A stretch of DNA of 45,719 nucleotides from a virus: IMG/VR virus record IMGVR_UViG_3300005253_000027, positions 1 through 45,719 of that record, one strand, 5' to 3'. The translations under genes were made by a program, and so were the position numbers. Shown piece after piece: positions 9,576 through 20,644 of this stretch. Every line of letters starts with the position of its first letter. The stretch's first letter is position 1. Below the pieces are notes generated by a model that did no database searches, was not told the origin of the DNA, and saw only the letters and a list, made by a program, of their open reading frames with translations.

Positions 9576-10022
9576 TCAATCCTTTACGAACCAGGCATGA
9601 ACATCGTGTCCTTGGCGTATCCATCCCGGTATGTGGCCGGGAATATGACTATCAGTACCAGTGTGAACATCATGGAACAAATAGAAGTCCGGCTCGCTCA
9701 CAATATCGCCGATGTCGCGAGCATAGTCCCAATTTGACCGCGAAACACTCAACCGGCCATTGGCACTGTTTACAAAAACTAAACATTTCTCATACTCCGA
9801 TTCCGGCTCGTAGCCGGGCTTGAGGATGAGCAGTTGATCGCACCAGACTGATAGCTCCCGGCCGTGTGCAGAGCCATCCGGTAAATTTTTCGTGACTTGG
9901 AGCGTATTCTTAATCCCGGCATCAAACAAGACGCCCTGCTCCTCTTTGGAACGTATCCAGTACGGCTGTACCTTTCTCGGGTCTTTCAACTTCTTGATTC
10001 GTTCTTTTAGTTCTTTGTCCAT
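9576..10022 (-). CDS. Hypothetical protein, 148 aa
   Basis: ATG 10022 (MDKELKERIKKLKDPRKVQP) follows an ATAGGAG site. The protein has a basic helical start, then a mixed fold with several aromatic residues (SVWCDQLLILKPGYEPESEYEKCLVFV; SNWDYARDIGD) and a His-rich end (LFHDVHTGTDSHIPGHIPGW). The His cluster could bind a metal. No family was recognised. It is the first gene left of the repeated GCGAGCGAA leader. Confidence 0.65.
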   Translation of the reverse strand: MDKELKERIKKLKDPRKVQPYWIRSKEEQGVLFDAGIKNTLQVTKNLPDGSAHGRELSVWCDQLLILKPGYEPESEYEKCLVFVNSANGRLSVSRSNWDYARDIGDIVSEPDFYLFHDVHTGTDSHIPGHIPGWIRQGHDVHAWFVKD

Positions 10023-10091
10023 GTCGTTCTCCTATTCTGTTAATAAAAGCGAGCCGGCCTCCTTGCCGTGCTGTGTAGCTTCCTTGGCGTG

Positions 10092-10109
10092 TTCGCTCGC
10101 GTTGATTTT
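10092..10109. repeat. 18-base direct repeat, copy 1
   Basis: TTCGCTCGCGTTGATTTT occurs here and at 10424..10441. Both lie in gene leaders on the minus strand (reading AAAATCAACGCGAGCGAA), ahead of the 10022 and 10403 starts. Here GCGAGC can also pair with GCTCGC near 10050, followed by TTTT, a possible attenuator. Confidence 0.7.
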
Positions 10110-10112
10110 GCG

Positions 10113-10403
10113 TCATAATTGTTGTGCCTGTTTTCTTATGGCAGTTTCTACGACAGTAACTCTATTTGCAAGAACGGCATCCAAGCAAATTCGCATTTTT
10201 GTATGCTCATCGCGTGTCAATATGGTAATTTTTACATGAGTACATGGTCCACCAAATTCTACAGTTACATCGCTCCTGATACGCTCGTGCTTCAGGTCAG
10301 CCTCGTCAAGCGTATCGTATCCAAATAGTTTGGCAATCTTTTCTTGCTGTTCCTGTGTGCGCTCCAATTGCGTCGTTAGTTTTGTCAAATTATGCGTATC
10401 CAT
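10113..10403 (-). CDS. Hypothetical protein, 96 aa
   Basis: ATG 10403 has a strong AAAAGGAG site. The N-terminal 30 residues are helical and polar (LTKLTTQLERTQEQQEKIAKL). The rest is alpha/beta with two beta strands (DVTVEFGGPCTHVKITILTR) and a C-terminal helix ending RKQAQQL. No known motif. Its leader contains a double hairpin (10445..10485). Confidence 0.65.
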   Translation of the reverse strand: MDTHNLTKLTTQLERTQEQQEKIAKLFGYDTLDEADLKHERIRSDVTVEFGGPCTHVKITILTRDEHTKMRICLDAVLANRVTVVETAIRKQAQQL

Positions 10404-15478: not shown

Positions 15479-15728
15479 TTCTATTCTGCCTTTCTTTCTT
15501 CGGTTCCCGGTTTCCGGTTCCCGATTCCTTTTCATCTTCCACTCGCGGCGGCAAGTCCAGTGCCGCTTTCATAGCGCCGAGCATTTCATGCTTACCATCA
15601 GTGAATATGACCTCTTGGAACCAGAGATTATCTACCTGGGTCCGCTTCTTGACGGTCTTGATTGTGAGATCGTACCCGCCCGTACCTTGATCTACTTCCA
15701 TGCCTAGAATGTCTAGTATTGATGTCAT
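15396..15728 (-). CDS. Hypothetical protein carrying the GAMKAALDLPPR motif, 110 aa
   Basis: The first 65 residues (MTSILDILGMEVDQGTGGYD..., LWFQEVIFTDGKHEM) look like a compact alpha/beta domain and end in LGAMKAALDLPPR. That motif is also in the 16784 gene, and the DNA is almost identical there (see repeat). After it the sequence becomes low-complexity and basic and overlaps the next gene by about 80 bases, so the C-terminus may be a read-through of a frame that once stopped earlier. Confidence 0.6.
   Translation of the reverse strand: MTSILDILGMEVDQGTGGYDLTIKTVKKRTQVDNLWFQEVIFTDGKHEMLGAMKAALDLPPRVEDEKESGTGNREPKKERQNRNGRGYEISQRRHPVRNQIPCRRQNSKD
15546..15582. repeat. 37-base repeat, copy 1
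   Basis: CGGCGGCAAGTCCAG followed by T then GCCGCTTTCATAGCGCCGAGC matches 16689..16725 with one mismatch. In both places the minus strand encodes LGAMKAALDLPPR in frame, so an exchanged coding module, not chance, is likely. Confidence 0.85.
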
Positions 15729-15758: not shown

Positions 15759-15873
15759 CTAAAAAAGCTGGTCGCCCTCCGTGGCGTACTCGTCAATCAT
15801 TTTACCAAACCGGTTTTTTTGACAGCACTCAAGAGTCTCCAGTCTACGCTTGACATTGTATTCCGTGATCCAT
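15759..15873 (-). pseudogene. Small gene with probable one-base frameshift
   Basis: ATG 15873 follows an AAAGGTGG site but runs into a stop after 10 codons. One base over, an open frame reads ITEYNVKRRLETLECC, then QKNRFGKMIDEYATEGDQLF to a stop at 15761, and looks coding. Removing one G in ATGGATC would join start and frame into a 37-residue protein. It may be an assembly error or decay; translation could also restart at the internal ATG (MIDEYATEGDQLF). Confidence 0.4.
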
Positions 15874-15902
15874 CACCTGCTACCACCTTTCTTCAAGTTC
15901 AA

Positions 15903-16231
<329 letters not shown>

Positions 16232-16244
<13 letters not shown>

Positions 16245-16561
16245 GCGACCGCTCCCATCATCGCTTGCCCAGCCGCTTTGCTCATCGGAATTATTTCAAT
16301 AGCTTCTGTTAATTCGATATGAGGCACGGGCACACTGATTTTCGAGTTGACTAAATCGACACCATCCATCGCCACTTGGCTCAAACTGCATGCGCCTTGC
16401 CATGACCACAGTCGTCGTGCATTCTTGAGCACCACTTCTTTGCCCTCTCGGCTTTCCAGTGTTCCGAAATGCACACCCGCCGAATACGTTCGCACTAAAA
16501 CGAGACCGCCTAACTTGACTGCCTCCACGTACTGCACATCATCAATCACTACTGTCTTCAT
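16232..16561 (-). CDS. DUF6948-like protein, 109 aa
   Basis: ATG 16561 (MKTVVIDDVQYVEAVK) is preferred. The body reads VLVRTYSAGVHFGTLESREGKEVVLKN with ARRLWSWQGACSLSQVAMDG and ELTEAIEIIPMSKAA, a pattern I associate with a domain of unknown function found in phages and bacteria (DUF6948 by memory; not verified). Its last codons overlap the start of the Gly-Tyr repeat protein, and from memory such proteins are often followed by glycine-repeat proteins. The pair may be one functional unit. Confidence 0.6.
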
Positions 16562-16613: not shown

Positions 16614-16784
16614 CTAAAACATTTCTTCTTCTGATTCCGGGTCGTCGGGCAACGTGTCATGTTCTGTTGCAAAAGGTTCCTCGCTTCTCGGCGGCAAGTC
16701 CAGGGCCGCTTTCATAGCGCCGAGCCCAAGGGCCGTCAGCACCGGCTCTACGCATCCGTCTATTGCTTTGTCGTGGTCGTACAT
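16614..16784 (-). CDS. Small acidic protein with the GAMKAALDLPPR motif, 56 aa
   Basis: ATG 16784 has a strong AAGGGG site. The product starts MYDHDKAIDGCVEPVLTALG, contains LGLGAMKAALDLPPR and ends with a strongly acidic tail (LPDDPESEEEMF). The motif and its DNA are shared with the 15728 gene. It may be a peptide that binds a partner through the common helix. It overlaps the end of the YopX gene by 25 bases. Confidence 0.7.
   Translation of the reverse strand: MYDHDKAIDGCVEPVLTALGLGAMKAALDLPPRSEEPFATEHDTLPDDPESEEEMF
16689..16725. repeat. 37-base repeat, copy 2
   Basis: Matches 15546..15582 with one mismatch; see that entry. Confidence 0.85.
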
Positions 16785-18014: not shown

Positions 18015-18164
18015 TCAGTGTGTTTTACGAGTTATAATCTCGGCCACTTTCTCTTGCAGAGCGGGAACTGTTTTGTATGTATCCACGAACCAGCCGTCAA
18101 CAGTCAATTGGTAGCTAGTATTGACGATCTCAATTTTTATATCAATTGTCGCATACACTGACAT
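18015..18164 (-). CDS. Hypothetical protein, 49 aa
   Basis: ATG 18164 is at ideal spacing from AAGGAG; an ATG 6 bases upstream is too close. The product (MSVYATIDIKIEIVNTSYQL...) is a beta strand pair with a short helix (VPALQEKVAEIITRK). Its leader carries the hairpin with loop ACGGAA and is a candidate CsrA target. Confidence 0.65.
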   Translation of the reverse strand: MSVYATIDIKIEIVNTSYQLTVDGWFVDTYKTVPALQEKVAEIITRKTH

Positions 18165-18179
18165 AATCATTCTCCTTAT

Positions 18180-18195
18180 GGGCCTTCCGTGGCCC
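18180..18195 (-). promoter_or_regulatory. Leader hairpin with ACGGAA loop (candidate CsrA site)
   Basis: On the minus strand GGGCC-ACGGAA-GGCCC forms a 5-bp stem with a six-base loop holding ANGGA, the CsrA consensus core. It is followed after AUA by AAGGAG, the Shine-Dalgarno site of the 18164 gene, itself an ANGGA match. This is a diverged copy of the module at 18867 and 19700. Confidence 0.6.
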
Positions 18196-18207
18196 GGTTA
18201 CGGTCCG

Positions 18208-18366
18208 TCAGTGAGAGGTTGCCATATCACGGATTTCTTGTTCAAGTCCCGATATGCGTTCCTGTGAGATTTCCAACTTCCCGTCTATTGCACAGGCGGG
18301 GCAACTTACTTCGTCTGAGAATACCGGCACGAAGTCTTCGTGTAAATCACAAGCTTGCAGTGGCAT
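18208..18366 (-). CDS. Cys-pair helical protein, 52 aa
   Basis: ATG 18366 (MPLQACDLHEDFVPVFSDEV) has AAGGAG at 7-8 bases; ATG 18372 is too close. It has VSCPACAIDGK, then a coil (EISQERISGLEQEIRDMATS). It again has the Cys-pair-then-coil pattern seen at 11821 and 12303. The leader has a GCCC/GGGC hairpin but without a GGA loop. Confidence 0.65.
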   Translation of the reverse strand: MPLQACDLHEDFVPVFSDEVSCPACAIDGKLEISQERISGLEQEIRDMATSH

Positions 18367-18425
18367 AATCATACTCCTTTCCTGATAAGATGCCGCCCAA
18401 CGAGGGCCGGAGGCGACAAGAAACA

Positions 18426-18623
18426 TCAACGGGTTAAGGCTTTGGAATCCATAACTGCCTGGCTTGGATTGGCAGACTGTAACTCGGAACGTCGCTTGAT
18501 CCAATATTCCCCACTTTCTCCCTGAAACATAGGATCACCGGATGGAGCAAATCGAATGCGTGATAATAGCTCATAGTGACTCTTGCTGTCAATTTCTGCT
18601 TTAAGTTCTGGTGTTAAGTCCAT
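18426..18623 (-). CDS. Hypothetical protein, 65 aa
   Basis: ATG 18623 has an AAGGA site. The protein (MDLTPELKAEIDSKSHYELL...) begins with two helices and continues as MFQGESGEYWIKRRSELQSA. An opening LTPELK.EID..S...L....RFAP.GDP.F....G.YW pattern recalls a conserved phage miniprotein. The function is unknown. Confidence 0.7.
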   Translation of the reverse strand: MDLTPELKAEIDSKSHYELLSRIRFAPSGDPMFQGESGEYWIKRRSELQSANPSQAVMDSKALTR

Positions 18624-18641
18624 ATTCCTTGCCTCGCTTTC

Positions 18642-18869
18642 TTACTTAAATCCGCACTGTTCTCGAATCTGCGTAATGATATTATCCAGCGGCTCCACCA
18701 ACCAAGACTCGCGCCAAAGCTGTGTCTTTTTGCGGACTAGCTTGGTTATTGGATTGCCCGGGGTGCCTGAATCAAGGTTCATTGATTTCATAGTAGCTGT
18801 TTGACGTATTTCTCGCAGGCCGTCATAAATACGCTCGGCTTGCTTGATGCCGATAGGTTTATGTATCAT
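18642..18869 (-). CDS. Hypothetical protein, 75 aa, under a repeated leader
   Basis: ATG 18869 is the last base triplet of a 41-base leader shared exactly with the 19702 gene. The product (MIHKPIGIKQAERIYDGLRE...) is basic and helical with no known motif. The leader hairpin (loop AGGGAC) and AAGGGAG site suggest that its translation is regulated. Confidence 0.65.
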   Translation of the reverse strand: MIHKPIGIKQAERIYDGLREIRQTATMKSMNLDSGTPGNPITKLVRKKTQLWRESWLVEPLDNIITQIREQCGFK

Positions 18870-18907
18870 TTTCTCATACTCCCTTGGGCGTCCCTGCCCG
18901 GTCTACG
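18867..18907 (-). repeat. 41-base leader module, copy 1
   Basis: Identical to 19700..19740. On the minus strand it contains the stem GGGC-AGGGAC-GCCC (18899-18886), then CAAGGGAG and the ATG. Both the loop and the Shine-Dalgarno site match ANGGA, as in classic CsrA targets. The flanking sequences of the two copies differ, so the module itself is what was copied or conserved. Confidence 0.9.
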
Positions 18908-18924
18908 GTCCGTCTGGTTTGAGC

Positions 18925-19110
18925 TCACGGCTTGGCGTGTTGTGTTACGTGCCAGTCCTGCATCCTGCGAATGAGCCGATCCTCTGCCTCCGGCTTCAAG
19001 GTATCGGCGACGCCGGCTCGCATGGCATAACCGGCAGTTGCAGAGCCCGCTGCACATCCCATAGCGCACAATAGACAGACTAAGCTCATTATTACAATCG
19101 TCGTCTTCAT
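18925..19110 (-). CDS. Small predicted lipoprotein, 61 aa
   Basis: ATG 19110 has AAGGAG. MKTTIVIMSLVCLLCAMGC is a lipoprotein signal with lipobox CAMGC, leaving a mature chain of about 43 residues (AAGSATAGYAMRAGVADT...). The size recalls outer spanins, but it is not Pro-rich and sits in the early block, so host envelope modification or superinfection immunity is an alternative. A longer overlapping frame on the same strand is rejected. Confidence 0.7.
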   Translation of the reverse strand: MKTTIVIMSLVCLLCAMGCAAGSATAGYAMRAGVADTLKPEAEDRLIRRMQDWHVTQHAKP

Positions 19111-19205
19111 GGTTCTCTCCTTGATAGTAGGTTAAAGGTCGACTTCGTTCGGGAATTGCCACCAGCGTTTCAGGCATTTTCTCACCTCTCATATAGGGTT
19201 AAAAA

Positions 19206-19412
19206 CTACAACGATTGAGCGATATAATGCTCACGCACGGCAACCACGGCAAGCGCCCTTGTTTCGTGATACCCGCTATAACTCATATCGTATGTTTCGG
19301 CAAGCCAGGACCGCCGAGCACCTCTAACAATGCCAATTCTTTCATCACCGTAATAAACATGATATATTCCAATTATGTATTTTTGTATGCGTGTCTTGCT
19401 TAATACTGCCAT
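19206..19412 (-). CDS. Hypothetical protein, 68 aa
   Basis: ATG 19412 (MAVLSKTRIQKYIIGIYHVY) is preferred because ATAGGAG precedes it. It has a beta-rich first half (YHVYYGDERIGIVRG) and a helical end (TRALAVVAVREHYIAQSL). The ribosome site lies in the loop of an ACTTGA/TCAAGT hairpin. No known family. Confidence 0.65.
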   Translation of the reverse strand: MAVLSKTRIQKYIIGIYHVYYGDERIGIVRGARRSWLAETYDMSYSGYHETRALAVVAVREHYIAQSL

Positions 19413-19413
19413 G

Positions 19414-19438
19414 ACTTGATCTCCTATTCTATTCAAGT
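19414..19438 (-). promoter_or_regulatory. Hairpin displaying the ribosome site of the 19412 gene
   Basis: ACTTGA and TCAAGT (19414-19419 and 19433-19438) form a 6-bp stem with a 13-base loop that contains AUAGGAG on the minus strand. This would present GGA in a loop next to the start codon, a possible further CsrA-type site. Confidence 0.45.
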
Positions 19439-19456
19439 ATCGGCTTGATTCGAGGG

Positions 19457-19702
19457 CTAGTCGTCCCAAGTTTCAAATCGTTCGTTAGTGTCTACGTTTT
19501 TAGGCGCAAAGTGTGGGATACTAATGAGACTACCACCAAGACACCCGCATCGCACATATCCCAGATTGACGTCTATTACCATGCAGCCGTCCTGAGTCAA
19601 CACTCTACCACATAGCGGACAGTTTGCGCGGATTGATTCCACGTGTACGTTCACTGCGGGATATATCTTTGCTTTTGCGACCGTGATTCTTTTCTTTGCC
19701 AT
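19457..19702 (-). CDS. Zinc-ribbon protein, 81 aa, under a repeated leader
   Basis: It has NCPLCGRVLTQDGCMVIDV then YVRCGCLGG, one zinc ribbon, after a basic N-terminus (MAKKRITVAKAKIYPAVNVH). ATG 19702 is at the end of the second copy of the 41-base leader. It is probably co-regulated with the 18869 gene. Confidence 0.7.
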   Translation of the reverse strand: MAKKRITVAKAKIYPAVNVHVESIRANCPLCGRVLTQDGCMVIDVNLGYVRCGCLGGSLISIPHFAPKNVDTNERFETWDD

Positions 19703-19740
19703 TTTCTCATACTCCCTTGGGCGTCCCTGCCCGGTCTACG
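19700..19740 (-). repeat. 41-base leader module, copy 2
   Basis: Identical to 18867..18907 (hairpin loop AGGGAC, then AAGGGAG and ATG). Confidence 0.9.
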
Positions 19741-19782
19741 AATCCCGTCGAACGTAACTCCGGGCGGGGCGAGCGTGATTTA

Positions 19783-20399: not shown

Positions 20400-20431
20400 A
20401 GTGATTGTCGGACGTTAATGGAGTGTCATTG

Positions 20432-20445
20432 TGAAAGGGATTTCA
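20432..20445 (+). promoter_or_regulatory. csrA ribosome site in a GGGA-loop hairpin
   Basis: TGAAA-GGGA-TTTCA is a perfect 5-bp stem with tetraloop GGGA, ending one base before ATG 20447. The loop is the Shine-Dalgarno site and with its preceding A bases fits ANGGA. CsrA binding here would block its own translation, as for E. coli csrA. Confidence 0.65.
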
Positions 20446-20446
20446 G

Positions 20447-20644
20447 ATGTTGGTATTGACTAGGAAACCAGGTAAAGGGATTATGATCGGTGACGATGTG
20501 GAAATTATCATCGTCGACGTTCGTGGAGACAAAGTTCGATTGGGCATAACCGCCCCGAGAAGCATATCTGTTCATCGTAAAGAAATCTACGATACAATAA
20601 TGCAAGAGAGACTTGAAACGGCTGCCGCAGCTATGTCGAAGTAA
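20447..20644 (+). CDS. csrA: CsrA-family RNA-binding translational regulator
   Basis: The 65-residue product aligns along its whole length with bacterial CsrA: MLVLTRKPGKGIMIGDDVEI, then VRGDKVRLGITAP and VHRKEIY. The RNA-contact residues Leu4, Arg6 and Arg44 are all present. CsrA is a domain-swapped dimer that binds ANGGA in hairpin loops and usually blocks the ribosome site. Here it has its own promoter, own terminator and a self-target hairpin, so it forms a separate transcription unit at the centre of the control region. It may rewire host metabolism, time phage early genes, or both. Confidence 0.97.
   Translation: MLVLTRKPGKGIMIGDDVEIIIVDVRGDKVRLGITAPRSISVHRKEIYDTIMQERLETAAAAMSK

What the first reader, a model, noticed from the sequence alone, without database searches (positions are those of the whole stretch)
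18171..19740. Repeated leader hairpins with ANGGA six-base loops ahead of three early genes
Two genes (18869 and 19702) share an identical 41-base leader holding GGGC-AGGGAC-GCCC followed by AAGGGAG and ATG. A third (18164) has a diverged version, GGGCC-ACGGAA-GGCCC then AAGGAG, also preceded by a similar ACGGACCGTA stretch. Six-base loops with ANGGA plus a second ANGGA at the ribosome site are the classic two-site CsrA target, and this genome encodes a CsrA. The proteins behind the leaders are unrelated, so selection acts on the leader.
Basis: partly seen in the sequence, partly recalled or inferred. Interest (0 to 1): 0.82.

Follow-up and report, generated by a model that had tools for sequence, protein, structure and literature searches.

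The report
Phage leader hairpins likely bind CsrA
A virus of bacteria carries its own copy of the bacterial RNA-binding regulator CsrA and, in front of three small genes and the regulator gene itself, RNA signals of the kind CsrA binds, which suggests that the virus uses the borrowed regulator to control its own genes; no experiment has tested this.

Summary
Leaders A (gene 18869) and B (19702) share 41 identical bases with GGGC-AGGGAC-GCCC; leader C (18164) has GGGCC-ACGGAA-GGCCC. All three hairpins fit CANGGANG, the published high-affinity CsrA hexaloop. The upstream ACGGAC in A and C is itself an ANGGA site, exactly 18 nt before the loop site. The csrA mRNA also has two ANGGA sites 18 nt apart, the second being its Shine-Dalgarno inside a hexaloop. 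The published CsrA bridging range is 10-63 nt, optimum about 18. ANGGAN is the commonest loop among the window's GC-rich hexaloops (5 of 54; all five intergenic, sense strand). Across phages, 6 of 38 independent csrA leaders have the SD in such a hexaloop, against 5 of 524 other genes. The CsrA resembles that of Phycisphaerae, whose csrA-linked flagellin leaders have the same shape in 13 of 13 cases. Against: no relative carries these genes, A and B are probably a recent duplication, and csrA-less relatives also repeat start-site cassettes without ANGGA hexaloops, so repetition alone is not evidence for CsrA. Verdict: probable phage-encoded CsrA regulon with autoregulation (about 0.6); a new variant of a known kind.

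The parts
18870..18924 (-). Leader A (intergenic): ACGGAC 18913-18908; hairpin GGGC-AGGGAC-GCCC 18899-18886; SD AAGGGAG 18885-18879; GGA-to-GGA spacings 18 and 11 nt
18642..18869 (-). Gene A, 75 aa, unknown function (part matches phrog_29142)
19703..19782 (-). Leader B (intergenic): CGGGAT 19747-19742; hairpin GGGC-AGGGAC-GCCC 19732-19719; SD AAGGGAG 19718-19712; identical to A over 41 nt including the ATG; spacings 19 and 11 nt
19457..19702 (-). Gene B, 81 aa, cysteine-rich (CPLCG...CGC), unknown
18165..18207 (-). Leader C, diverged (its upstream ACGGAC site, 18208-18203, begins at the last base of the preceding stop codon): hairpin GGGCC-ACGGAA-GGCCC 18195-18180; SD AAGGAG 18177-18172; spacings 18 and 13 nt
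18015..18164 (-). Gene C, 49 aa, unknown
20447..20644 (+). csrA, 65 aa, first + strand gene; L4, R6, H43 and R44 kept
   Evidence: PF02599 2.6e-24; phrog_9500; alignment
20418..20446 (+). csrA leader: ATGGAG 20418-20423, then TGAA-AGGGAT-TTCA 20432-20445 with the SD in the hexaloop; GGA-to-GGA spacing 18 nt
10055..10068 (-). Possible further site CGGC-AAGGAG-GCCG, 42 nt before the ATG at 10022 (uncertain: protein-like frame)
15773..15786 (-). Possible further site CGCC-ACGGAG-GGCG, 54 nt before the ATG at 15728 (uncertain: protein-like frame)

Best explanation
The leaders are CsrA operators, and the phage's own CsrA is their most likely reader. A CsrA dimer would bridge two ANGGA sites on one mRNA. 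In A and C these are the upstream ACGGAC and the CANGGANG hairpin loop 18 nt on, or the loop and the ANGGA-containing Shine-Dalgarno 11-13 nt further. This would block ribosomes and keep translation of three small leftward-operon proteins low once CsrA builds up. csrA mRNA carries a two-site operator 18 nt apart, with its own SD in a hexaloop, so CsrA would cap its own synthesis. Shown by sequence: the sites, spacings, loops, the csrA gene and the cross-phage enrichment at csrA. Inferred: binding, repression (rather than activation or titration), timing, and that phage rather than host CsrA acts.
For: Hexaloop enrichment in leaders. All five GC-rich ANGGAN hairpins fit CANGGANG, described as the high-affinity apical hexaloop in PMC4894983. 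ANGGA pairs 18 nt apart in A, C and csrA; 18 nt is the commonest ANGGA pair spacing in the window's leaders; CsrA bridges sites 10-63 nt apart, optimum about 18 (PMC7652899, PMC4894983). C keeps the loop rule and gains a stem pair, with one both-sided change. Phage csrA leaders: 6 of 38 independent ones have the SD in a hexaloop of 4 or more pairs against 5 of 524 other genes, p 2e-5, or 7e-4 given the motif. Other genes of csrA+ phages: 7 of 398 motif-bearing leaders against 0 of 277 in csrA- phages, p 0.045. CsrA is closest to Phycisphaerae CsrA, up to 75-77%, where 13 of 13 csrA-linked flagellin leaders put the SD in an ANGGAG hexaloop. RNA-contact residues are kept.
Against: A, B and C are homologous, and A and B are probably a recent duplication. 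csrA-less relatives also have repeated start-site cassettes and hairpins. No relative carries leaders A-C. The csrA hairpin is weak (one GC pair, not in the MFE fold). Loop-to-SD spacing of 11-13 nt is near the lower bridging limit. Most phage csrA leaders (32 of 38) lack the hairpin, including the cultured F116 and Vibrio phages. The excess at other genes of csrA+ phages is only borderline.
Confidence: 0.58

Rival explanations
1. Start-associated ribosome-binding cassettes. The repeated leader is an RBS module copied along with small accessory genes; its hairpin is a generic insulator or stabiliser and the loop sequence does not matter. CsrA is not involved.
For: A and B are perfect 41-nt copies. 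The csrA-less relative L138 has GAAAGGGACTAAAAATG before six small genes, several with upstream GC hairpins without GGA loops; L041 has GAGGTAGTCAAGTAATG six times or more. Mycobacteriophage SAS/ESAS repeats are a published parallel (PMC3203893).
Against: It does not explain the CANGGANG loop, the 18-nt second ANGGA site, their retention in diverged copy C, or the same 18-nt pair at non-homologous csrA.
Confidence: 0.25
2. Host CsrA is the reader. The phage leaders exploit or titrate the host's CsrA, for example as an mRNA sponge like Campylobacter flaA, and the phage copy acts mainly on host genes.
For: Likely hosts have csrA and flagellin leaders of the same shape. flaA mRNA titrates CsrA (PMC4894983). 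Phage CsrA has been proposed to act on host CRISPR-Cas (PMC8450108). The plasmid CsrA RsmQ controls host behaviour (PMC9928087).
Against: The phage's own csrA leader carries the same two-site pattern, and csrA-less relatives lack ANGGAN leaders.
Confidence: 0.1
3. DNA-level element: a repeated promoter or repressor operator (ACGGACCGT is a 9-bp near-palindrome) that happens to lie in the leader.
For: ACGGACCGT is shared by A and C.
Against: B lacks it. No sigma-70-like promoter was found at the leaders. Conservation extends through the hairpin to the SD.
Confidence: 0.05

Closest known systems
Campylobacter jejuni flaA 5' leader (CsrA target, PMC4894983)
   Same: ANGGA in hexaloops, a second ANGGA covering the ribosome site, GGA spacing near 18 nt (21 there), csrA encoded in the same genome
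   Different: There both sites are in hairpins and binding is proven; here the phage leaders have one hairpin plus unpaired ANGGA sites, precede three unrelated genes, and are untested
csrA autoregulation in bacteria such as E. coli (PMC7652899)
   Same: CsrA-type sites at csrA's own ribosome-binding site
   Different: Phage-borne csrA; two ANGGA sites 18 nt apart with the SD in a weak hexaloop
Plasmid-encoded RsmQ (PMC9928087)
   Same: CsrA homologue on a mobile element that prefers ANGGA in hairpin loops
   Different: RsmQ's described targets are host genes; here the element's own genes carry the sites
Mycobacteriophage cluster K start-associated sequences SAS/ESAS (PMC3203893)
   Same: Short repeats at the start codons of non-structural genes, some with inverted repeats upstream
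   Different: Different sequence (GGGATAGGAGCCC), 17-bp inverted repeats, reader unknown
Phage T4 RegA and phage Mu Com (own knowledge; Com also annotated)
   Same: Small phage RNA-binding proteins controlling translation of the phage's own mRNAs; RegA is autoregulated
   Different: Unrelated protein folds and different RNA motifs

Membership tests
CsrA-regulated mRNA leader | ANGGA in an apical hexaloop | tested here: met
   A, B and C, all CANGGANG; csrA leader ANGGAN
CsrA-regulated mRNA leader | Second GGA at the ribosome site or 10-63 nt away (optimum about 18) | tested here: met
   18 nt in A, C and csrA; 19 nt in B (CGGGA, not ANGGA); SD sites at 11-13 nt
CsrA-regulated mRNA leader | Cognate CsrA with RNA-contact residues | tested here: met
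   PF02599; L4, R6 and R44 kept
CsrA-regulated mRNA leader | Stem covariation with fixed loop in relatives | tested here: inconclusive
   Only three in-genome copies, one both-sided change; no relatives carry the genes
CsrA-regulated mRNA leader | GGA-dependent binding and CsrA-dependent expression | not testable with these tools
   needs gel shift and reporters
Autoregulated csrA | CsrA sites overlapping the csrA SD | tested here: met
   AGGGAT in hexaloop at 20436 and ATGGAG 18 nt upstream; stem weak
Start-associated sequences (SAS/ESAS) | 13-bp GGGATAGGAGCCC next to starts | tested here: not met
   Leader sequence differs
Start-associated sequences (SAS/ESAS) | Repeat at the starts of several non-structural genes | tested here: met
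   Three genes here; six genes in relative L138

The most novel reading that the evidence does not exclude
Phage-encoded CsrA proteins commonly work as translational regulators of the phage's own genes, with autoregulation, in the manner of T4 RegA, rather than only as weapons against the host. This phage carries a small self-directed CsrA regulon built by copying an operator cassette onto unrelated genes.
Probability: 0.4. Interest if true: 0.75.

Novelty: new variant of a known kind. Interest (0 to 1): 0.58.

Why it matters
CsrA genes were found in about 1% of phage genomes surveyed (PMC7366521), and their proposed targets are host genes, notably CRISPR-Cas (PMC8450108). In the papers searched here I found no described phage-encoded target of a phage CsrA. 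Concrete operators on the phage's own mRNAs, including csrA itself, make the question 'what is phage CsrA for?' directly testable with short RNAs and one small protein.

Tried and rejected
Exact leader search in IMG/VR found nothing, and DNA search in phages found only one chance-sized match. Relatives of proteins A and B in IMG/VR: none. Rfam: no match. Fold stability against shuffles: uninformative. Sigma-70 promoters at the leaders: none. Two further hairpins (10064, 15782) were set aside as uncertain because they lie in protein-like frames. The SELEX consensus score ranks the loops high but not uniquely so (rank about 41 of 1407 for A and B). Phage records from the annotated collection: no SD hexaloop of 4 or more pairs at csrA in 14 records. 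Prophage search in 10 Planctomycetota genomes found nothing, but 5 of 397 genomes of one such class have terminase matches, two of them strong; the 37-kb contig from one lacks csrA. AlphaFold was not run: the CsrA fold is not in doubt.

Full report
WHAT WAS CHECKED. The window is a 45.7-kb virus record with 121-nt direct terminal repeats. It encodes a T7-type portal, a terminase large subunit and a Phage_capsid_2 capsid protein. Most genes left of about 20.2 kb lie on the - strand and those to the right on the + strand; csrA (20447-20644 +, PF02599) is the first + strand gene. The three leaders are present as described and lie between genes. A and B are identical over 41 nt including the ATG. 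C is diverged: its stem is one pair longer and its loop differs at positions 2 and 6, exactly the two positions left free in ANGGAN. One of four aligned stem pairs changes on both sides.

CHANCE. With heuristic gene calls, 6 of 87 leaders contain an ANGGAN hexaloop on a stem of 4 or more pairs, against 0.13 expected from dinucleotide shuffles; with 4 or more GC pairs it is 5 against 0.02. In the whole window there are 54 GC-rich hexaloop hairpins. ANGGAN is the commonest class (5; no other exceeds 2), and all five are intergenic and in sense orientation. Because A, B and C are copies, the number of independent events is smaller. Two of the five (10064, 15782) are uncertain because protein-like frames run through them. 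ANGGA at the SD is in itself ordinary: 32 of 87 genes have it.

(1) The upstream ACGGAC of A and C is itself ANGGA, and its GGA lies exactly 18 nt before the loop GGA in both, although indels separate the two leaders. (2) The csrA leader, not homologous to A-C, has ATGGAG and AGGGAT 18 nt apart, the latter being the Shine-Dalgarno inside a four-pair hexaloop next to the ATG. 18 nt is the commonest ANGGA pair spacing in the window's leaders (4 cases, 3 of them these). CsrA bridges sites 10-63 nt apart with an optimum near 18 (PMC7652899; PMC4894983). (3) The hairpins of A-C fit CANGGANG, given in PMC4894983 as the high-affinity apical hexaloop. B is weaker: its upstream site is CGGGA at 19 nt.

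OTHER PHAGES. Thirty-four further IMG/VR loci encode relatives of this CsrA, and 14 regions from annotated phage records were added. Of 38 independent csrA leaders, 6 (window, L007, L011, L018, L019, L034) put the SD in an ANGGAN hexaloop of 4 or more pairs with different stems, against 5 of 524 other genes on the same contigs (p 2e-5; 7e-4 given the motif). At other genes of csrA+ phages the excess is borderline: 7 of 398 motif-bearing leaders against 0 of 277 in csrA- phages (p 0.045). Seven permuted motifs of similar make-up gave 0 or 1 each. One phage family (L011/L013/L017) has such hairpins at csrA, at the gene before it, and further downstream. Cultured csrA phages such as F116 do not show the hairpin, so it is not universal.

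LIKELY HOST. The closest bacterial CsrA proteins are nearly all from Planctomycetota, mostly Phycisphaerae and Sedimentisphaerales (up to 75-77%). The class of one such genome (G007, reached through L059) holds two genomes with terminases 48-51% identical to this one. In csrA-linked loci of these bacteria, 13 of 13 flagellin genes adjacent to csrA put the SD in an ANGGAG hexaloop with stems of 3-8 varying pairs; one further flagellin paralogue does not. This is the leader shape of a known CsrA target type (flagellin; compare C. jejuni flaA, PMC4894983) in the group from which the phage's CsrA appears to come. Host assignment remains an inference.

RIVAL. csrA-less relatives of this phage also repeat start-site cassettes: GAAAGGGACTAAAAATG before six small genes in L138, with assorted GC hairpins upstream, and GAGGTAGTCAAGTAATG in L041. 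No csrA was found in the 37-kb L138 contig, nor ANGGAN GC-hexaloop leaders in csrA- relatives. So repeated leaders are a habit of this group and do not by themselves show CsrA control; published mycobacteriophage SAS/ESAS elements are a parallel (PMC3203893). What the rival leaves unexplained is the combination of CANGGANG loop, 18-nt partner site, retention in C, and the same arrangement at csrA.

MECHANISM. Most likely, phage CsrA binds these leaders as a dimer across two ANGGA sites and lowers translation of the three small proteins and of itself, a feedback-limited post-transcriptional switch working like T4 RegA (own knowledge). In the predicted folds, part of the AAGGGAG in A and B pairs with the CC before the hairpin, so the SD is already partly masked. 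Activation by unmasking is therefore not excluded. Binding, direction of regulation and timing are inferred.

LITERATURE. csrA in phages is known (30 of 2517 genomes, PMC7366521). Proposed roles concern host genes such as CRISPR-Cas (PMC8450108), and plasmid RsmQ acts on host mRNAs and prefers ANGGA in hairpin loops (PMC9928087). In the held open-access library I found no description of a phage CsrA regulating phage genes; subscription papers were not searched.

Noticed in passing
L070, L071, L079, L096, L098, L101, L102, L112-L115, L120, L127: All 13 csrA-adjacent flagellin genes of Phycisphaerae-type bacteria have the Shine-Dalgarno in an ANGGAG hexaloop hairpin with varying stems, a candidate conserved CsrA operator in Planctomycetota.
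   Followed up: partly
L138:12183-14540 (- strand): Relative phage contig in a bacterial genome assembly repeats GAAAGGGACTAAAAATG at the start of six small genes, several behind GC hairpins: start-associated sequences without csrA.
   Followed up: partly
L041:886-1767: GAGGTAGTCAAGTAATG-type start cassette repeated six times or more ahead of consecutive small genes.
   Followed up: partly
L011, L013 and L017: A separate csrA+ phage family with ANGGAN hexaloop hairpins at csrA, the gene before it and genes downstream: a second candidate phage CsrA regulon.
   Followed up: partly
window 10034-10115 (-): After the TGA stop of gene 10403-10113 the same frame continues protein-like (RKINASEHAKEATQHGKEAGSLLLTE) to the next stop; could be a recent nonsense change, readthrough or a sequencing error.
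   Followed up: no
window 15762-15880 (-): Protein-like frame without a usual start codon (WITEYNVKRRLETLECCQKNRFGKMIDEYATEGDQLF).
   Followed up: no
window 15851-16276: Long tandem array of 6- and 12-nt units (GCTATG-like), open in several frames.
   Followed up: no
window 15543-15582 and 16686-16725: 40-nt direct repeat, 95% identical, 1.1 kb apart.
   Followed up: no
window 18925-19110 (-): 61-aa lipoprotein-like gene (LLCAMGC lipobox) just upstream of leader A.
   Followed up: no
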